This document shows positions 1 to 20,247 of a stretch of 64,000 nt of DNA, one piece after another. The stretch is taken from assembly GCA_009929615.1 (NCBI GenBank), contig SAAB01000001.1:1-64000 (forward strand), written 5' to 3'. Source of the stretch: Clostridia bacterium (GTDB lineage Bacteria; Bacillota; Clostridia; Lachnospirales; Lachnospiraceae). The stretch's first letter is position 1. Every line of letters begins with the position of its first letter. The notes beneath the pieces were generated by a model. The model was not told the origin of the DNA. It searched no databases and was given only the letters and a program-made list of their open reading frames with translations. A program made the position numbers and the translations under genes.

Positions 1-61
1 CAGAGGTGGAAGTGCAGCAATGCATGGAGCTGACTGTTACTAATCGGTCGAGGGCATGACC
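1..61 (+). rRNA. 23S rRNA, 3' end (partial)
   Basis: The first 61 bases match the conserved end of bacterial 23S rRNA: an AGCTGACTG-TTACTAAT-CGGTCGAGGG stretch followed by the GCATGACC that pairs with the 5' end of the molecule. The rest of the gene lies off the left edge. The expected 5S gene does not follow; a terminator and tRNA-Trp come next. Confidence 0.9.
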
Positions 62-136
62 AGAAGGTTGGTCGTAAGAAGGTAAGAAAGTGTTTGATGG
101 AAGAGAGTTTTCAGTATGTAGTTTTGAAGGCATATG

Positions 137-164
137 AAGCGAATACATTATGTACTCGCTTTTT
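137..164 (+). terminator. Terminator after the 23S rRNA gene
   Basis: A 10-bp stem (137-146 with 152-161, one A/C mismatch) with a 5-base loop runs into a T-tract that restarts as GTGTTTTT. It lies between 23S rRNA and tRNA-Trp, so it would limit transcription of the tRNA from the rRNA promoter. Confidence 0.6.
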
Positions 165-187
165 GTGTTTTTAGCAATTTTATATTT

Positions 188-258
188 AGGGGAATCATAC
201 AATGGCAGTATTGCGGTCTCCAAAACCGTTCATGGGGGTTCGAATCCCTCTTCCCCTG
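188..258 (+). tRNA. tRNA-Trp (anticodon CCA)
   Basis: A full cloverleaf of 71 nt can be drawn. Acceptor 188-194 pairs with 251-257, D stem 197-200 with 208-211, anticodon stem 213-217 with 225-229 and T stem 234-238 with 246-250. The anticodon loop is CTCCAAA, giving CCA at 220-222. The T loop is TTCGAAT. The discriminator base is G258 and CCA is not encoded. The D loop has 7 bases, which is short but keeps the GG pair. Confidence 0.93.
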
Positions 259-340
259 CTAAAAAACCTTATAAAAAGGAGGTTTTGAGTGGTGTTGTTA
301 AAAAAGTAATCAAAAAGGTAATCATCACAAATACCAGTAT

Positions 341-606: not shown

Positions 607-948
607 TTACTTTGTAACTTTATTCTCATCCGCTTTATCTGCCAAAGTATGAGCATCAATGAAGTCCTGTAATTCTTCTTTAGTAACCTTGCCATCTTTG
701 ATAATGTCTAAAACTTCATCAGCAAGCTGTGCCCCATCAGTAAAAGAGTGATTCTTCCAAACATCATAAAGCATTACGCCCACAGTAATAATAGCAACAA
801 TGCCGTTAACCACATAAGATACAGTGCCTTCTCCAACATTAAGCACTGGTCTGCCAAGAATAGCCAGCACTGCATTAATAGCCACAATAACAGTCATAAT
901 TACGCTTACGTATGTAGATGGGTTAATTCCTTTTAAATTCAATTTCAT
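607..948 (-). CDS. Phage holin-like membrane protein
   Basis: This 113-residue protein has two hydrophobic segments, about residues 10-33 and 43-62, then a charged acidic/basic C-terminal tail. That is the plan of small phage holins, which make inner-membrane lesions that release the endolysin. The start is an ATG at 948 with AGGAGG just upstream. It shares strand with the amidase endolysin at 2233-3297, giving a lysis pair separated by a toxin/antitoxin insertion. The exact holin family cannot be fixed from sequence alone. A role in lysis is inferred from topology and neighbours, and the surrounding phage genome is otherwise largely lost. Confidence 0.75.
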   Translation of the reverse strand: MKLNLKGINPSTYVSVIMTVIVAINAVLAILGRPVLNVGEGTVSYVVNGIVAIITVGVMLYDVWKNHSFTDGAQLADEVLDIIKDGKVTKEELQDFIDAHTLADKADENKVTK

Positions 949-1248: not shown

Positions 1249-1854
1249 TTAATACGATTCTAGTCCAAAAATATTTTCAATGTTATCTCCAATTAGTAAG
1301 CACATTGGAGTACATTTACCTAGGGCATCATCTTGTTCATATGGAATGATATATGCAGATGCGTCAATAAATTTTTTTCGTCTATATAATGCTTCACCAT
1401 TTTCATTGGCTCTCAAAAATATCATTTGAAATCCAATTACACTAGTTGATATTCTATATAATTCTTCCAATAGCCATTCAAAAAATATTGTACTATAATA
1501 TTTTCCGGTCGCATCAAGACTCCATGCATTTACTTTCTGAAATCTTTTAGGTATAGCGAAATACTTTATCTCTACACAAGGGATACTATACAATTTTGTA
1601 TCAGAAGGTTCGTCTAAATAATAATGTAATGACATTGCCTGAATTGTTGCAAATGCAAAAATAGTAGAAATGGTTCCATTCTCACATTCAGCTTTATCCA
1701 CTAAAACATAAGTTACACCCATGCCATCAGCACTCTTATCAACAGCGTCTTCAACTAAATAATCATTAAAGTCAGAATGCCCACAATTAAACTTACGTAA
1801 GACATTCTGACTTATTTTAGCTCTCGCCAATTCTGTATATACAAATTCCTGCAC
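1249..1854 (-). CDS. GNAT-family acetyltransferase, probable toxin
   Basis: This 201-residue GNAT-fold protein resembles the acetyltransferase toxins of type II toxin/antitoxin systems (TacT/AtaT type). These use acetyl-CoA to acetylate the amino acid on charged tRNA and block translation. Supporting features are the N-terminal region with FNCGHSDFNDYL, the central strand VEIKYFAIPKRFQ, and the C-terminal ALYRRKKF segment typical of GNAT toxins. The start is GTG at 1854, overlapping the stop of the upstream small gene in a TAGTG junction, which implies translational coupling. It sits between endolysin and holin, a common place for accessory phage genes. The target is not visible from sequence; a simple acetyltransferase is possible. 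Confidence 0.7.
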   Translation of the reverse strand: MQEFVYTELARAKISQNVLRKFNCGHSDFNDYLVEDAVDKSADGMGVTYVLVDKAECENGTISTIFAFATIQAMSLHYYLDEPSDTKLYSIPCVEIKYFAIPKRFQKVNAWSLDATGKYYSTIFFEWLLEELYRISTSVIGFQMIFLRANENGEALYRRKKFIDASAYIIPYEQDDALGKCTPMCLLIGDNIENIFGLESY

Positions 1855-2036
1855 TAATTATCGTCATCCTCACACATTTTTTTCATCTGTTCCATAGTAG
1901 AAGATGAAACTATTTTACTTGTTCCTAAGAAATCAGATTTTGTCATATGTTGTTTTGTCAGTTCTTTAATGAACGCTTTTGTCATACCTTTTAAAACTAT
2001 TGTTGATTCTCTTGGCTTATTAATAGTCATATTCAT
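1854..2036 (-). CDS. Small antitoxin-like protein paired with the GNAT gene
   Basis: This 60-residue protein begins MNMTINKPRESTIVLKG and ends in an acidic stretch (CEDDDN). The ATG at 2036 is chosen because AAAGGAGG lies 8 bases upstream; the frame stays open to 2096, but no ribosome site supports a longer form. Its stop shares a base with the GTG of the GNAT gene. A small gene directly before and coupled to a GNAT toxin is the usual antitoxin arrangement, so the role is inferred from context. I do not recognise a standard DNA-binding fold with certainty. Confidence 0.6.
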   Translation of the reverse strand: MNMTINKPRESTIVLKGMTKAFIKELTKQHMTKSDFLGTSKIVSSSTMEQMKKMCEDDDN

Positions 2037-2067
2037 AATCTCATCCTCCTTTTCATTATCTCTATTT

Positions 2068-2096
2068 ATTATACCACCCCTATCATATGTTTTCAA
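2068..2096 (-). promoter_or_regulatory. Promoter of the toxin/antitoxin pair
   Basis: On the minus strand TTGAAA (2091-2096), a 17-bp spacer and TATAAT (2068-2073) make a near-consensus housekeeping promoter 31 bases before the antitoxin ATG. The spacer includes CATATG, a possible part of an operator. Confidence 0.75.
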
Positions 2097-2232: not shown

Positions 2233-3297
2233 TCACTCAACCCATGCCTGAATCTTATCTATGGCACAACCCTTTACTCCTGCATAACCGTCTTGGTCAC
2301 TATCAGTTTCATCGTCATGCTGATAAGGATAGAAGAATTCATGATTGGTGTCACTAACACAGTATACAGCCTTTTTAAACGCATAACCATCTGGTGTGTT
2401 GTAATACAGCATGACAGCTTCAATAGGGCTTCCATCACCCAATACACCGTTCTCAAGGTCATTGATGTTGTATGTATTACCGAATGTCAGCTTAGGCAAC
2501 CAACCATTAGCCTGTGTGTAAACCTGTCCAGTAATGGTTCCTTTGCTTACACATACAGCCAAGTATCTAATTGGTTCACCGTCACCAGCACCAGCCCAGT
2601 CTTCACGATTCTTAACTGCGTCCCACCATCTACCTGTATAAGCCTGATAGATACAATCTACACCGCCAAGGTCATCTGTTCTATCTGGTTCAACAGGTAC
2701 TGGCTCTGGCTGAGGTGCTTCAGGAGCCGGTACGGGAGCATCATGTGCATCTCCATCACCATTCATAGACATCCCTAAAGTTTCTAAAATACTTCTGGCA
2801 ATCAAATTCACCATTTCATTATACTTATTAACGAATAAGCTATTGTCATATCCATTATCAATGAATCCCAATTCCATTAACACAGCTGGCATATCTGTAG
2901 AATTAAGGACATATAAATCAGTTCTAATTTTTGTGCCACGATTAGTATAACCTAAAGCCTCCATTCCATAATTCATACTATCTGCGAAAGCTCTAGCATA
3001 GCCCTGATTTGAATATACACATGTTTCATAACCAGCAGCTCCTGCACCAGATGCGTTTCTATGAAACGATACAAAGAAGTCACAACCTTCTCTATTAACT
3101 TGTGGTACATAATTTGCCATGTGAGCATCAGCTCCACCGTTTGTAGTACGTGTATAAGCTACTTCTAAGCCATTTGAAGACAAAATTCTGCCAACAGCAA
3201 GTGCTACACCTAATACATCATCTGCTTCTCGTCTTCCAAAGCCACATGCACCTGGGTCATCGTCTCCGTGTCCTGGGTTTAAATATACTTTTGCCAT
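2233..3297 (-). CDS. N-acetylmuramoyl-L-alanine amidase, phage endolysin
   Basis: This 354-residue protein opens with an Amidase_3 domain (residues 1 to about 175), a zinc enzyme that cuts the bond between muramic acid and the stem peptide. Zinc ligands appear as the His in NPGHGDDDPGA, the Glu in GRREADD and the His in SFHRNASG. A Pro/Glu-rich linker (about 185-205) leads to a C-terminal module of roughly 150 residues that probably binds the wall. There is no signal peptide, in keeping with export through a holin. AGGAGG precedes the ATG. It forms a lysis cassette with the holin at 607-948. Host lysis is inferred; the domain assignment is firm. Confidence 0.88.
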   Translation of the reverse strand: MAKVYLNPGHGDDDPGACGFGRREADDVLGVALAVGRILSSNGLEVAYTRTTNGGADAHMANYVPQVNREGCDFFVSFHRNASGAGAAGYETCVYSNQGYARAFADSMNYGMEALGYTNRGTKIRTDLYVLNSTDMPAVLMELGFIDNGYDNSLFVNKYNEMVNLIARSILETLGMSMNGDGDAHDAPVPAPEAPQPEPVPVEPDRTDDLGGVDCIYQAYTGRWWDAVKNREDWAGAGDGEPIRYLAVCVSKGTITGQVYTQANGWLPKLTFGNTYNINDLENGVLGDGSPIEAVMLYYNTPDGYAFKKAVYCVSDTNHEFFYPYQHDDETDSDQDGYAGVKGCAIDKIQAWVE

Positions 3298-3325
3298 ATT
3301 TGTTCCTCCTTATTTTTTTATCTAC

Positions 3326-3525
3326 ATCAGTTTCATTCCGAGAAATCTGGGAAAAACAGTTCTTTATAACGTTTCAAGATGTACTCATGCAATACTTGAA
3401 AATGATTGGTCAGATAAAACAATTAATGATGAATCATATAAAAAGTGGGATAAAGCATACGAATATGCACTGGATATGACAATAAAAGAGATTTATCAAG
3501 CCGTAGAAGGAATGTATCACAACCT
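3326..3525 (+). pseudogene. nrdD: Anaerobic ribonucleotide reductase fragment (nrdD-like exon 1)
   Basis: An open stretch with no start codon encodes about 66 residues beginning ISFIPRNLGKTVLYNVSRC and ending IYQAVEGMYHNL. The end resembles class III ribonucleotide reductases, where a (Q)A.EG..HNLN segment precedes a conserved SRAG block. The 5' part of the gene is missing because the endolysin region abuts it. The reading ends at a group I intron 5' splice site after CCT at 3523-3525. The continuing exon is not seen in the window, so no functional enzyme is made here. The nrdD assignment is from memory of the family and is moderately sure; the coding character is clear. Confidence 0.6.
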
Positions 3526-3650
3526 TAATTATTAGGGCGACTCAATAGTAATATTGAGAACATAGCTATCTAAACGGGGAAACTCTTAAAGGCATTAAGA
3601 CAATCCCGTGCTAAATTTGTATCGTTAATTTTTAAAGAAAGGAGGTAACC
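3526..3650 (+). ncRNA. Group I intron, 5' half of the catalytic core
   Basis: The sequence carries group I intron landmarks. P1 pairs exon CCT with GGG at 3535-3537, giving a U-G at the splice site. P2 is the hairpin CTCAAT/ATTGAG at 3541-3558. The core contains CTATCTAAACGGGGAAACTC (3567-3586) and AGACAATCCCGTGCTAAATT (3598-3617), which I recognise as close to the core of the phage T4 td intron. An endonuclease gene starts at 3651, as in td, where the ORF sits in the P6 loop. The 3' half (P7, P3', P9) was not found, so splicing is unlikely. Confidence 0.8.
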
Positions 3651-3917
3651 ATGTACACGGTATATCAACATAAAAACATGATAAACAATAAAAGTTATTT
3701 TGGAATTACGTCTCGAATTCCAGAACAAAGATGGGGAATAAATGGGGATAAGTATATCAGTAGTCCACATTTTTATAACGCTATCCAAAAATATGGATGG
3801 GATAATTTTGACCACATAATTCTATTTGAAAATTTAACAAAAGAAGATGCATGTTTGAAAGAACAGGAGTTAATTAGCGAATATAACACTATGGATAGAG
3901 ATGCGTGTCAAACATAG
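3651..3917 (+). pseudogene. GIY-YIG homing endonuclease, truncated
   Basis: The 88-residue product starts with a GIY-YIG nuclease domain: TVY at 3-5, KSYFGITS as the YIG element, the Arg of PEQRW and the Glu of KEQELI. Intron-encoded relatives run to roughly 200-260 residues, with a C-terminal DNA-binding part. Here the frame stops after NTMDRDACQT, where the family normally continues. The gene has a good AAAGGAGG site before its ATG. It lies in the loop of the group I intron half at 3526-3650, so it was probably the mobility gene of that intron. The DNA-recognition part is lost, so homing activity is unlikely. Confidence 0.75.
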
Positions 3918-3948
3918 ATAAATTACATGGAAAAGGAGAAATATTATT

Positions 3949-4134
3949 ATGGAATACGAAAACAATAACCATTTAAGCAGTTACATCGCCATGTTGATTG
4001 ATGTAGGCAAAGATTTCTCGGTAACAAATACAACAGCGTCTACATATGTCAACGTTACGTCTGACGGTTTGCCAATTATATCCATGGAATTTAGTAATGT
4101 GACCAATAAACTTATCAACATCTTTGCAAAATAG
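3949..4134 (+). CDS. Small phage-island protein of unknown function
   Basis: The 61-residue product begins MEYENNNHLSSY and has no signal peptide or membrane segment. A ribosome site (AAAAGGAG) precedes the ATG. It lies between the intron relic and two damaged membrane/lipoprotein genes on the same strand. I do not recognise the family. The good start signal suggests it was a real gene; whether it is expressed now is unclear, because no promoter is obvious. Confidence 0.45.
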   Translation: MEYENNNHLSSYIAMLIDVGKDFSVTNTTASTYVNVTSDGLPIISMEFSNVTNKLINIFAK

Positions 4135-4139
4135 GAGGA

Positions 4140-4400
4140 TTGTCTATCAAGACTTTAAAATACATTTTTGTTACAACTGTCTGTATTGCACTTGTCTCTG
4201 GGTGCAGTAGACCAGATAGTATAAAAACCACAGAGACTATGTTATCAGAAAAAGTCATTGTGCAAGAAGCACACGTAACTGATGGACAGTTTCTCACATC
4301 AAAGGGGATAGAAGCGGTGTTATTGATATTTATATGGATAGCTATGATTCGTGTGTTAATTTTGGAAGGCAGTATACGAATGTATATGTAGTGAATTAGG
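4140..4400 (+). pseudogene. Small lipoprotein gene with frameshift
   Basis: The reading from 4140 has a lipoprotein signal peptide (hydrophobic KYIFVTTVCIALVSG then Cys, lipobox LVSGC). After TSK at about 4302 the frame gives an odd hydrophobic tail ending at 4391. One base back, the frame continues KGDRSGVIDIYMDSYDSCVN and ends at a TAG at 4398-4400, just before the ribosome site of the next gene. One missing A in the CAAAGGGG run would explain this. There is no good ATG: TTG at 4140 lies only one base from GGAGG. The gene looks damaged at both ends of its frame. Confidence 0.5.
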
Positions 4401-4409
4401 AGGAAGTAA

Positions 4410-4684
4410 ATGGCATTATTTTTAGTATTCACCGTATGGCTGATAGATTTGTGCCTTTGCATTATTGGTGATATGACGCAGACAATATACTATGCATCAA
4501 TTGGCATTATTCTTATACTGATATTATATATGGCAATTAAATTAATAAGAGATGTGTCAAAGAATTTGTTGGAGTTAATCTTAATGACTACTCAGATAAA
4601 GCACATGTTGATATGTCAGGATGTATATTCGTAGACGACAACGAATCAAACTTATTTACGAGCAATGCTAGTGAGAAGATTTGC
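4410..4684 (+). pseudogene. Small membrane protein gene, frameshifted and truncated
   Basis: From the ATG at 4410 (AGGAGG upstream) the product has two hydrophobic segments, about residues 2-20 and 26-45. The frame then ends in a non-protein-like tail at 4634. One base back from about 4558 (TCAAAG run) the reading continues more plausibly as EFVGVNLNDYSDKAHVDMSG, up to the island's right edge near 4684, where chromosomal sequence of the opposite strand begins. The gene has probably lost one A and its 3' end. The original function is unknown. Confidence 0.4.
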
Positions 4685-4735
4685 TTGCGCCAGTTCCATT
4701 GTAAAGCCGACAGGAAGGTCTCCATTTTCAATCAT
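4652..4735 (-). pseudogene. Truncated small chromosomal gene at the island edge
   Basis: On the minus strand a GAGGTG ribosome site precedes an ATG at 4735 that opens MIENGDLPVGFTMELAQ, an N-terminus I associate with a widespread small Firmicute protein of unknown function. After about 17 residues (near 4684) the sequence switches to island DNA and the frame stops at 4652. The gene has therefore been cut by the insertion or a later deletion. Confidence 0.55.
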
Positions 4736-4787
4736 GCATATCACCTCGAAAATAGTATGTCCCTAATGATATAAGATTATTACAATG

Positions 4788-4819
4788 AAAAAAGCCGATG
4801 AATATTCATCAGCTTTTTT
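4788..4819. terminator. Bidirectional terminator
   Basis: AAAAAAGC, a C/A mismatch, GATGAA/TTCATC and GCTTTTTT form a long hairpin with A and T tracts at the two ends. It ends the minus-strand gene at 4831-5136. Confidence 0.8.
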
Positions 4820-4830
4820 GCTGTAACGGA

Positions 4831-5136
4831 TTACCATAGGGCGACTTCAAAACAGCTTGCAGCACTGGCAAAAAGTTCTGCAACTGGCTCATAGGTCATA
4901 CCAAGAGAATCACAGATGGCTGGCAGTTCTTGTGTGAATTCAATAATGTCTACATCCATATGATAATATTTTTGAAGAATGGAAAGAATTTCATGGGAAA
5001 AGATGAGATTATATTTTTCGCCAAGAAAGAACACCCCATATTTTTTAAATAAGCCCATTGGGTCCTGCTTTTCATTAAAAGCTTTGCTGTCTGCCTGCAA
5101 TTCTTTAAGAGCGGATATTACTTCGTCCCGATTCAT
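4831..5136 (-). CDS. Conserved-looking small cytosolic protein, unknown function
   Basis: The 101-residue product begins MNRDEVISALKELQADSKAF and is mostly helical in character, with no signal or membrane segment. AAGGAGTG precedes the ATG and a strong terminator follows, so it is a single-gene transcription unit. I do not recognise a named family. It lies next to a cut gene for another small protein on the same strand, with which it may once have formed an operon. Confidence 0.6.
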   Translation of the reverse strand: MNRDEVISALKELQADSKAFNEKQDPMGLFKKYGVFFLGEKYNLIFSHEILSILQKYYHMDVDIIEFTQELPAICDSLGMTYEPVAELFASAASCFEVALW

Positions 5137-5301
5137 ATTAACACTCCTTTTTGATTTTCTCTAGAATTATTTTATCATAAGAGTGCTTTGCTGACTATAG
5201 GATTTTGCAACAATTGTTACAAATCTTTACAACACTTTTGTATAATGTTATAATTAATTTTCAAGCCTATTTGGCAATTTATAGGGAAGGGGGATTATCT
5301 T

Positions 5302-5499
5302 TTGGAGGGTAAATTTTATACAAAATTGTGGTTTATATTATGTATGTGCGTGTTGATGCCGCCTTTTGGCATTTTTCTGACTTTATATTTTAAAAATCCC
5401 GTTGTTGTTAAATGGAGAATGGTTGTTGTGGCAGCCACATTGATTCACTGGGCAGTCTGGCTGTATATTGCTTATTTTAGTCCGATGAAAATCATGTAA
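5302..5499 (+). CDS. Small two-helix membrane protein
   Basis: The 65-residue product has two transmembrane segments, about residues 9-28 and 38-58, joined by a short loop with KNPVVVKWR. The start is TTG at 5302, supported by AAGGGGGA 7 bases upstream; no in-frame ATG is better placed. It is 15 bases ahead of the acetyltransferase gene, so the two probably share a transcript. The function is unknown. Confidence 0.6.
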   Translation: MEGKFYTKLWFILCMCVLMPPFGIFLTLYFKNPVVVKWRMVVVAATLIHWAVWLYIAYFSPMKIM

Positions 5500-5514
5500 T
5501 CAGGAGGCAGTTTC

Positions 5515-6306
5515 GTGGAAAAATTCCAGATTGGCGAGATTGAGGAGATTTTGATTAATGCATTTCCGGCAATAGAGCGGGAAATATATGATGGATGGAT
5601 ATTAAACTTTTCGGGCGGTTACACATATCGTGCGAATTGTATTTATCCATTCTATGCTTCGAAGTATTCCTTAGAGGAAAAAATTTCTCATTGTGAAGAA
5701 CAGTACAGAGAGTTGTTTATGCCGGTGGTTTATAAAATGACATCGGCGATAGATTCTGAGTTGGATGATTTATTGGAAGCACAGGGATATGATATTGTAA
5801 AATATGTAGATATTATGTGCCAGGAACTGACAGATTGGGAGGCACATCCTTGGAAAGCACCGGATGAGAACTATGAAGTGGTGACAATGACAGCTATGGA
5901 TAAGGAATGGATTCAGGGGGTTACGCGTTTGATAGGGATACCTTTCAGGTCCATGGAAAAGATACAGGAAAAGATTTATAACAGAATTTGTCTGCCGGTT
6001 GTCTGCGTTAAGGTTAAACATGAGGGCAGAGTTGTTGGAACCGGTCTGGGTGTACTCGAGCGTCATTACATAGGACTTTATGCGATTCATGTTAACAAAG
6101 ATTATCGCCGAAGAGGTCTGGCTATGAAAATCTGCAGTGATATTATGGAGCGTGGCAGGATTATGGGAGCCACAAAGGCTCATTTGCAGGTGAGACAGGG
6201 GAATACAGGTGCATTTGCCATGTATGAAAAGCTTGGTATGAAAAAAGTTTATACTCAGTGGTTCCGCATGAAATCCTGGCCGGAATCAAGAAAAATATTT
6301 GATTAA
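5515..6306 (+). CDS. GNAT-family N-acetyltransferase
   Basis: This is a 263-residue protein with a C-terminal GNAT domain (about residues 130-255). The acetyl-CoA pyrophosphate loop is DYRRRGLAMKI, and the C-terminal GNTGAFAMYEKLGM segment is typical of the fold. The N-terminal 120 residues form a second, more diverged half that begins with a DGWILNFSGGYTYRAN motif seen in a subgroup of double-GNAT proteins. The start is GTG at 5515 with AGGAGG upstream. It follows a small membrane protein gene by 15 bases and ends at a strong terminator. The substrate cannot be told. Confidence 0.8.
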   Translation: MEKFQIGEIEEILINAFPAIEREIYDGWILNFSGGYTYRANCIYPFYASKYSLEEKISHCEEQYRELFMPVVYKMTSAIDSELDDLLEAQGYDIVKYVDIMCQELTDWEAHPWKAPDENYEVVTMTAMDKEWIQGVTRLIGIPFRSMEKIQEKIYNRICLPVVCVKVKHEGRVVGTGLGVLERHYIGLYAIHVNKDYRRRGLAMKICSDIMERGRIMGATKAHLQVRQGNTGAFAMYEKLGMKKVYTQWFRMKSWPESRKIFD

Positions 6307-6336
6307 AAAACAGTAGGAATTCGTCCTACTGTTTTT
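6307..6336. terminator. Bidirectional terminator between convergent genes
   Basis: CAGTAGGA (6311-6318) pairs with TCCTACTG (6324-6331), flanked by an A-tract and a T-tract. It serves the plus-strand acetyltransferase gene and the minus-strand hydrolase gene. Confidence 0.88.
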
Positions 6337-6339
6337 GCT

Positions 6340-7326
6340 TTATACGGCTGTATAATAAATGATGTTTTTTTCTTTGTGGCGGACAATTCTGTCGCGTTTA
6401 ATCAGATAGTCCAGATGTGAAATGGTTTCACCGATGGCGAACCATTTCTGCTGTATCGGGAACTCGGCCCAGTTTTTGCCGCGCATGGACCAGGTCATAC
6501 GTGCGCCTATTTCACAGGCGTTAAGCCCAGGCTCTTGCTGAATAATGGAAAGTGTCTGATTGATACGGCGGTCATGGTGCTCTTCGATTTGCTCGATGCG
6601 TTCGTAGACATCCATGTCGTTTTTTCTGTGGGCCGGTAATGTTAAGGAAATATCCAGGGAACGAATTTTTTTCAGACTTTCCAGATAATTTCCAAGAGAA
6701 TCTTCCACATCACGCCACATGGTAATGTTCGGAGTAATATCGAATAAAATATGGTCTCCGGAGAAAAGAATCTTTTCCTGTTCCATAAAAAGACAGGTGT
6801 GTCCAGGCGTGTGTCCGGGGGTCCATATGCATCGAAAAGTATAGTCACCAATAGTAAATATTTCATTATCATAGATGGACTGAACTTTAAAAAGATATTC
6901 GGGTGCATAACTGCGGGCTGGATTTACCTCCCGCTGTAATAAAATCAAATCTTTTGAGAGACCTTCACGATAAAATTTTTCTTCCATCCAGGACCAGTTG
7001 TCGCCAACATAAGTGCGGGTAAGATAGCTGTAATCCACATGGCTCATAAAAACCCTTGTTTTATCGGTCACTATGTGATTGACAAGGCCAACATGATCTG
7101 AATGTAGATGGGTAAGAAACAAAGTTGTGCGGTTCATATCAATATCCAGTTCCTTTAAGCCTTCAGTAAGAGCTGAGAGACATTCGGGCTGATTGAAGCC
7201 CGTATCAATAACAAGATTTTCTGCGGGCGTTTTTAGAATATATGAATTGAGAACTTTTAATGGATTATTTGGCAGTGGAACGGAAATTTTATAGATGTCC
7301 GGTTTTGTATTAATTTGTTCAACCAT
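6340..7326 (-). CDS. MBL-fold metallo-hydrolase with C-terminal winged helix
   Basis: The 328-residue product has a metallo-beta-lactamase fold (residues about 15-235). The metal motif is THLHSDHVG, with further ligands in TPGHTPGHT, SGDHILFD and PAHRK near 232. The last 90 residues form a small alpha-helical part like that found after the hydrolase domain in many soluble MBL enzymes of this subgroup. AGGAGG precedes the ATG. It is a single gene on the minus strand. The substrate is not clear; relatives act on thioesters or phosphoesters. Confidence 0.82.
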   Translation of the reverse strand: MVEQINTKPDIYKISVPLPNNPLKVLNSYILKTPAENLVIDTGFNQPECLSALTEGLKELDIDMNRTTLFLTHLHSDHVGLVNHIVTDKTRVFMSHVDYSYLTRTYVGDNWSWMEEKFYREGLSKDLILLQREVNPARSYAPEYLFKVQSIYDNEIFTIGDYTFRCIWTPGHTPGHTCLFMEQEKILFSGDHILFDITPNITMWRDVEDSLGNYLESLKKIRSLDISLTLPAHRKNDMDVYERIEQIEEHHDRRINQTLSIIQQEPGLNACEIGARMTWSMRGKNWAEFPIQQKWFAIGETISHLDYLIKRDRIVRHKEKNIIYYTAV

Positions 7327-7447
7327 TGGGAACCTCCTGTAAATATTTGCTGCTATCAGTATAGCATAAATTCATATCAGCGGACATAATTTTAGGTATG
7401 AATCCTTCTGTTTTGCGGATACTATGAAAAAACAGGAAGGTGAAAAA

Positions 7448-8110
7448 ATGAATCAGGAAAAAGATGAAAAGCTTCGGGAAAATGGTCAGATTATATTGGA
7501 GAATAACAGGGCGGATTACCGCATATTGCTCTTATCAATTATTGGTGAGATAGAAGGGCATGAAGCGGCACCAAATCAGAGTAAGGCAACCCAGTATGAC
7601 CATGTTCTGCCTCGGCTGGCAGCATTTGAAGATGATGATGAATTAGAAGGGCTTCTTGTCCTTTTAAATACCCAGGGAGGCGACGTGGATGCAGGACTGG
7701 CGATTGCAGAAATGATAGCAACCTTGAGCAAACCAACGGTATCTCTGGTGCTGGGCGGTTCCCATTCTATAGGAGTGCCATTGGCGGTATCGACAAATTA
7801 TTCTTTTATCGTAGAATCGGGGACCGTGCTCGTCCATCCTGTACGCATGGGCGGCACTGTTATTGGAGCACCTCAGAGTTTTGCTTATTTTAAACGCGTT
7901 CAGGATAGAATTACGAGATTTATAGCGAGACATAGTCATACAACAAAGGAAGACCTTGAACAAATGATGATGGATAATACAGAATTAACAAAAGATTTGG
8001 GAACCATACTTGTTGGAAAAGAGGCAGTGGAGGCCGGAATTATTGACGAGGTTGGAGGAATATCCCGAGCACTGGAACATTTAAAGGCTATGATTGAATC
8101 GGGAAAATAA
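7448..8110 (+). CDS. tepA: ClpP-class serine protease TepA
   Basis: This is a 220-residue crotonase/ClpP-fold protease of the TepA (translocation-enhancing protein) family, thought to degrade signal peptides or help export at the membrane. The family landmarks are present: LNTQGGDVDAGLAIAEMI, the serine in GGSHSIGVPLA, and the catalytic His in VHPVRMGG. The start is set at 7448, because GGAAGGTG lies just ahead of it while an upstream in-frame ATG at 7424 has no ribosome site. In Bacillus tepA lies next to spoIIIE. Here uppP sits between tepA and the ftsK/spoIIIE gene, a partly kept neighbourhood. Confidence 0.85.
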   Translation: MNQEKDEKLRENGQIILENNRADYRILLLSIIGEIEGHEAAPNQSKATQYDHVLPRLAAFEDDDELEGLLVLLNTQGGDVDAGLAIAEMIATLSKPTVSLVLGGSHSIGVPLAVSTNYSFIVESGTVLVHPVRMGGTVIGAPQSFAYFKRVQDRITRFIARHSHTTKEDLEQMMMDNTELTKDLGTILVGKEAVEAGIIDEVGGISRALEHLKAMIESGK

Positions 8111-20180: not shown

Positions 20181-20222
20181 TCTCTGGACTGGTTCGGAAA
20201 CTTCCCAGGATAAAAAACCAAG
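20181..20222 (+). promoter_or_regulatory. Candidate preQ1-I riboswitch
   Basis: The sequence fits the preQ1 class I aptamer. Stem P1 is TCTGG (20183-20187) with CCAGG (20205-20209). An A-rich tail ATAAAAAA (20210-20217) follows directly. The tail's CCA (20218-20220, extended to AACCA) pairs back to TGG (20190-20192, extended to TGGTT) in the loop, making the H-type pseudoknot P2. A C-rich element lies at the P1 junction, where the ligand-binding cytosine is expected. It sits about 15 bases ahead of the queK ribosome site, so control of translation is likely. The loop between P2 and P1 is longer than in the Bacillus example. Confidence 0.7.
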
Positions 20223-20247
20223 AATCTGAAAAGATAGGAGAATGAAT

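What the first reader, a model, noticed from the sequence alone, without database searches (positions are those of the whole stretch)
3326..3917. Broken nrdD-like gene interrupted by half a T4 td-type group I intron with a cut-down GIY-YIG endonuclease
Seen: a coding stretch without start ending at CCT (3523-3525), then a P1 partner GGG, P2 hairpin, and the core blocks CTATCTAAACGGGGAAACTC and AGACAATCCCGTGCTAAATT, then an 88-residue GIY-YIG gene. Known: td introns of T4-like phages have this core and carry a GIY-YIG gene in the P6 loop. Inferred: this is a relic of a phage ribonucleotide reductase gene invaded by a mobile intron, later deleted on both sides. Bacterial-phage introns in reductase genes of gut Firmicutes are little described, and the decayed state gives a direction of loss.
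Basis: partly seen in the sequence, partly recalled or inferred. Interest (0 to 1): 0.75.

Follow-up and report, generated by a model that had tools for sequence, protein, structure and literature searches.

The report
Dead fragment of a phage intron
A gut bacterium's chromosome carries a broken scrap of a phage nucleotide-synthesis gene that still holds the front half of a self-splicing intron and a truncated, probably inactive homing-enzyme gene; it is a genomic fossil of a known kind, not a working element.

Summary
Window 3526-3650 is the 5' half (P1/P2 to P6) of a td-type group I intron. A covariance model built only from relatives hits it at 109.6 bits, E 1.6e-24. Upstream of the splice site at 3525|3526 is the end of a phage-type nrdD exon (...EGMYHNL). 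At least 11 relatives in rumen/gut viral contigs carry a complete, mostly ~950-nt intron at exactly this nrdD site: GIY-YIG gene (224-226 aa where intact), 3' half and exon 2 (NTLQSRSGNQLPF...). Here the endonuclease stops at 88 aa: it lacks the conserved GYN motif and the whole C-terminal half. The 3' half is absent from the window and the held genome.

Corrections: nrdD starts near 3389, not 3326; 3302-3388 is the end of a minus-strand gene of the resident prophage type. To the right, 4562-4687 is a fragment of a phage deoxyribonucleotidase (NT5C), a gene that sits beside nrdD in a 176-kb gut phage. So 3389-4688 is a patch of gene scraps, most likely from a large phage, in a prophage scar beside tRNA-Trp. 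It cannot splice or home on its own. Introns in gut-phage nrdD are already described. Ordinary relic; low interest.

The parts
188..259 (+). tRNA-Trp (CCA) at the left edge of the prophage scar; the same tRNA edge is conserved in a congener
   Evidence: 83% match of window 36-258 to G001:C16:1-201
607..948 (-). Holin (SPP1 family), resident prophage remnant
   Evidence: Pfam PF04688 1.2e-11
2233..3297 (-). Endolysin (Amidase_3), resident prophage remnant; closely related gene in a second prophage on contig C73
   Evidence: Pfam PF01520 5.5e-33; 91% DNA identity to C73
3302..3388 (-). End of a prophage ORF (...HEYILKRYKELFFPDFSE*) and spacer; the rest of that ORF is missing. Not nrdD
   Evidence: 87.5% identity to L003:2627-2714, where the ORF is a full 183 aa
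3389..3525 (+). 3' part of nrdD exon 1, no start; ends ...KEIYQAVEGMYHNL at the splice site. Left limit known to about 12 nt
   Evidence: PHROG 487 weak match; 49-63% aa identity to exon 1 ends of relatives
3526..3650 (+). 5' half of a td-type group I intron: P1 partner, P2, P3 5' strand, P4, P5, P6 5' strand, then the endonuclease ribosome-binding site
   Evidence: RF00028 23.7 bits; model R1 109.6 bits; P2/P4/P5 100% paired with 7 covarying pairs across 14 sequences; DNA match to td introns of T4-like phages
3651..3917 (+). Truncated GIY-YIG homing endonuclease, 88 aa; homology ends near 3902, then four unrelated residues and a stop
3907..4560 (+). Unassigned stretch with small ORFs (3949-4134, 4140-4391, start of 4410-4634), no relatives found
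4562..4687 (+). Internal fragment of a phage NT5C-type 5'-deoxyribonucleotidase
   Evidence: 59.5% aa identity over 42 aa to MT835469.1 ORF L137:24117-24725, itself Pfam NT5C 1.8e-15
4689..4760 (-). Truncated start of an 82-aa ORF that is whole in a congener: right edge of the foreign patch
   Evidence: 80.6% match to G001:C16:894-965

Best explanation
Window 3389-4688 is a dead patch of phage-derived DNA lying in a prophage scar next to tRNA-Trp. It keeps the end of exon 1 of a phage anaerobic ribonucleotide reductase gene (nrdD), the 5' half of the td-type group I intron that sits in that gene in large gut phages, the first 84 codons of the intron's GIY-YIG homing endonuclease, some small ORFs, and a scrap of a phage deoxyribonucleotidase gene. 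In the source phages the intron splices out of nrdD mRNA (inferred from anatomy), and its endonuclease cuts intron-less nrdD so that the intron is copied in (inferred from the td system). Here neither step can work: P7, P8, P9, the 3' splice site, exon 2, the endonuclease's conserved GYN motif and its DNA-binding half are missing. The fragment most likely came from a large phage rather than the resident prophage, by illegitimate break repair or serial deletion (inferred).
For: A model made only from relatives hits 3526-3625 at 109.6 bits, E 1.6e-24. At least 11 relatives have exon 1, the intron (mostly 945-973 nt) and exon 2 at the identical nrdD site. The 3' half model finds nothing in the window or the held genome. 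The endonuclease is 53-74% identical to 220-226 aa relatives but stops before the GYN motif. The left junction to a prophage gene and the right junction to a host ORF are mapped. The NT5C fragment comes from a gene that neighbours thyX, a kinase, nrdD and nrdG in a 176-kb gut phage. The host's own two nrdD genes are whole and of other subtypes.
Against: No single known phage holds the nrdD intron and the NT5C piece in this order, and 3907-4560 has no relatives, so one source is not proven. The 5' half and the 84 codons show no in-frame stop or broken helix, so the truncation could be recent or part of the patch could still be read. The genome is a draft of 179 contigs, so a 3' half in a gap cannot be excluded.
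Confidence: 0.85

Rival explanations
1. The resident prophage itself carried nrdD with the intron, and internal deletions of that prophage brought the pieces together.
For: The patch abuts a gene end of the resident prophage type; G+C of the patch (0.31-0.34) is close to that of the prophage remnant (0.345).
Against: The phage-type nrdD exon and intron were found nowhere else in the genome, including contig C73 with the sister prophage. Several relatives with this nrdD intron lie on contigs of 108-145 kb, larger than usual temperate phages (general knowledge).
Confidence: 0.2
2. The half intron is one part of a split, trans-splicing intron whose 3' part lies elsewhere in the genome.
For: The 5' half keeps all testable helices.
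Against: The 3' half model has no credible hit in 3.5 Mb (best 15.9 bits, E 1.05). Exon 1 has no start, and no exon 2 of this type was found: the two nrdD genes of the genome are whole and of other subtypes.
Confidence: 0.01
3. The 88-aa GIY-YIG protein is a working minimal nuclease or regulator kept by the host.
For: Open frame with a good ribosome-binding site; conserved positions are kept up to the truncation point.
Against: It lacks the conserved GYN motif, whose Asn probably corresponds to the catalytic motif E Asn described for I-TevI (PMC2988022; the correspondence is inferred), and the DNA-binding half. It ends in four unrelated residues at a junction. No other of the 397 genomes sampled across the family has the locus.
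Confidence: 0.04
4. The resemblance is chance or an assembly artefact.
For: Only one genome has it, and it is a draft assembly.
Against: 109.6 bits against independent relatives, with covariation; it sits 3.4 kb inside a 200-kb contig with gene fragments mapped on both sides.
Confidence: 0.02

Closest known systems
td intron with I-TevI of phage T4 and T4-like phages (group I, td type)
   Same: Same core sequence in the 5' half by DNA search; GIY-YIG gene placed after P6; the 3' half of intact relatives also matches td introns
   Different: Host gene is nrdD, not td; the endonuclease is 224-226 aa in relatives; here only half the intron is left
T4 nrdD (sunY) intron with I-TevII
   Same: Group I intron with a GIY-YIG endonuclease in an anaerobic reductase gene (PMC2988022)
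   Different: T4-like nrdD matches run without a break across the site used here, so the insertion site appears to differ; T4 itself was not checked by name
nrdD introns of gut Jug phages (PMC12363816)
   Same: Gut phages with nrdD split by group I introns, splicing shown by metatranscriptomes in some
   Different: Predicted Bacteroides/Phocaeicola phages of 360-402 kb; insertion sites not compared here
nrdD introns of rumen/gut viral contigs (L005, L006, L009, L013, L014, L021, L107 and others)
   Same: Same gene, same splice site, same endonuclease family, 68-81% DNA identity
   Different: They keep the 3' half and exon 2; some have a broken endonuclease, and L127 and L133 have lost most of it

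Membership tests
Group I intron (td type) | 5' half core: P2, P4, P5 and conserved sequence blocks | tested here: met
   Model R1 109.6 bits; 16 of 16 pairs kept in all 14 sequences, 7 pairs with changes on both sides
Group I intron (td type) | 3' half: P7, P3 3' strand, P8, P9 and terminal G | tested here: not met
   No hit of model R2 in the window or the held genome
Group I intron (td type) | Interrupts a gene at a site where relatives have 5' and 3' exons | tested here: inconclusive
   5' exon end present, and the relatives' junction is identical; 3' exon absent here
Group I intron (td type) | Self-splicing | not testable with these tools
   No RNA data; missing P7 makes it implausible
GIY-YIG homing endonuclease | GIY-YIG catalytic domain | tested here: inconclusive
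   Pfam above cut-off (26.9 vs 22.6 bits), but the C-terminal GYN motif is lost
GIY-YIG homing endonuclease | C-terminal DNA-binding region | tested here: not met
   Ends at 88 aa against 220-226 aa in relatives
NrdD, anaerobic ribonucleotide reductase | NrdD catalytic domain and glycyl radical domain | tested here: not met
   Only about 46 residues at the end of exon 1 remain; homologous to NrdD by junction and alignment

The most novel reading that the evidence does not exclude
The prophage scar beside tRNA-Trp is a spot where pieces of infecting large phages are captured during break repair, so that the intron endonuclease's own cuts or resection in a phage genome fed a fragment into the chromosome by a one-sided, illegitimate event.
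Probability: 0.08. Interest if true: 0.45.

Novelty: new member of a known kind. Interest (0 to 1): 0.2.

Why it matters
It shows a piece of a large, probably lytic gut phage preserved in a bacterial chromosome, and points to a family of td-type introns fixed at one nrdD site across rumen and gut phages, in states from complete to endonuclease-deleted. That family, more than this relic, suits studies of intron gain and loss. The relic itself changes nothing in what is known.

Tried and rejected
Trans-splicing partner: the 3' half model was run on the window (3500-8000 also with filters off) and on the whole held genome; nothing above noise. Rfam hits elsewhere in the genome (best E 0.098) are far below the cut-off and were set aside. 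Source of 3907-4560: DNA and protein searches in phage records and viral contigs found no credible relative. Same locus in relatives: 5 genomes of the genus and 397 of the family showed no second copy. Solved structures: no match by sequence for the 88-aa protein. Staphylococcus phage hits to the right flank (E 0.02, about 42 nt) were judged chance. Host nrdD as source: rejected, other subtypes. cr116_1, the best 3'-half match in phage records, has its intron upstream of, not inside, its annotated nrdD.

Full report
Check of the observation. The GIY-YIG ORF at 3651-3917 is real (Pfam 6e-6; PHROG 314 4e-22). Rfam's group I intron model matches 3574-3657 at 23.7 bits, E 0.0024, below its gathering score, as expected for half an intron. 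To test it independently, 13 relatives' 5' halves were aligned without the window and made into a covariance model. It hits window 3526-3625 at 109.6 bits, E 1.6e-24, and nothing else in 64 kb. With the window included, P2, P4 and P5 are paired in all 14 sequences, with changes on both sides at 7 of 16 pairs and no shuffle reaching that. The core also matches td introns of T4-like phages by DNA search. So the td-type label holds.

The exon. In relatives the sequence before the intron is exon 1 of nrdD and the sequence after it is exon 2 (...EGMYHNL | NTLQSRSGNQLPFTSINYG...). In L125, which covers the same contig as L009, both flanks score as NrdD (PHROG 487 3.5e-60 and 3.5e-102; Pfam NRDD). 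The window's last codons before 3525 align with these at 49-63% identity. An intron-free version of the site is seen in Thomasclavelia phage TR-TP1, whose nrdD is itself annotated as split further downstream next to an HNH endonuclease gene.

Correction on the left. Window 3302-3388 matches a second prophage of the same genome (C73) at 87.5%, in the end of a 183-aa minus-strand ORF beside the endolysin. Read on the minus strand it gives ...HEYILKRYKELFFPDFSE*.

What is missing. Intact relatives carry a 224-226 aa endonuclease followed by a 3' half of about 150 nt. The window's endonuclease follows them for 84 codons, then reads ACQT and stops, losing the conserved GYN motif and the whole C-terminal region. 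Motif E of GIY-YIG enzymes contributes a catalytic Asn (PMC2988022); that this Asn is the one in GYN is inferred. A model of the 3' half finds nothing in the window (the stretch 3500-8000 with filters off) or in the held genome (best 15.9 bits, E 1.05).

The right side. 3907-4560 has small ORFs without relatives. 4562-4687 encodes 42 residues, about 60% identical to a deoxyribonucleotidase (NT5C) of a 176-kb human gut phage scaffold. There the gene lies in a cluster with thyX, a kinase, nrdD and nrdG (Pfam for these). From 4689 the window matches an ORF of a congener that lies between tRNA-Trp and the same host genes. So the patch 3389-4688 is bounded by broken genes on both sides and carries two different scraps of phage nucleotide-metabolism genes.

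Mechanism. Shown: a 5' half intron, a truncated endonuclease, no 3' half, broken genes at each end. Inferred: intact relatives splice and home as td does; the patch came from a large phage by illegitimate repair or serial deletion. One-sided illegitimate break repair with resection is documented for the td system (PMC2988022). Whether it happened here cannot be tested, because the source phage sequence is unknown and microhomology cannot be scored.

Known context. Introns in nrdD are known from T4-like phages and from gut Jug phages, where 95 of 104 nrdD genes were fragmented and some splicing was seen in RNA (PMC12363816). Split reductase genes in phages are reviewed in PMC3653736. Relatives here also include shortened introns (L127, 280 nt; L133, 344 nt) that keep exon 2 and the 3' core but have lost most of the endonuclease, so decay from complete to endonuclease-less is visible among phages.

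Verdict: a real, ordinary relic; new member of a known kind.

Noticed in passing
L005, L006, L009, L013, L014, L021, L107, L108, L127, L133: A family of td-type introns at one nrdD site in rumen/gut viruses; most complete at 945-973 nt, some with the endonuclease frame broken (L007, L008, L010, L011) or almost deleted (L127, L133).
   Followed up: partly
window 1249-2096 (-): Acetyltransferase (PHROG 1758) preceded by an 80-aa ORF within the prophage remnant; the layout resembles a GNAT toxin-antitoxin pair (from general knowledge, not tested).
   Followed up: no
window 4562-4687: Internal fragment of a phage NT5C deoxyribonucleotidase, read out of frame by the end of a small membrane-protein-like ORF (4410-4634).
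   Followed up: yes
L136 (Thomasclavelia phage TR-TP1) 1290-4324: nrdD is annotated as two pieces with an HNH endonuclease gene between them, a split at a different site from the one studied here.
   Followed up: no
window 20183-20227: PreQ1 riboswitch aptamer (40 bits, just above the gathering score).
   Followed up: no
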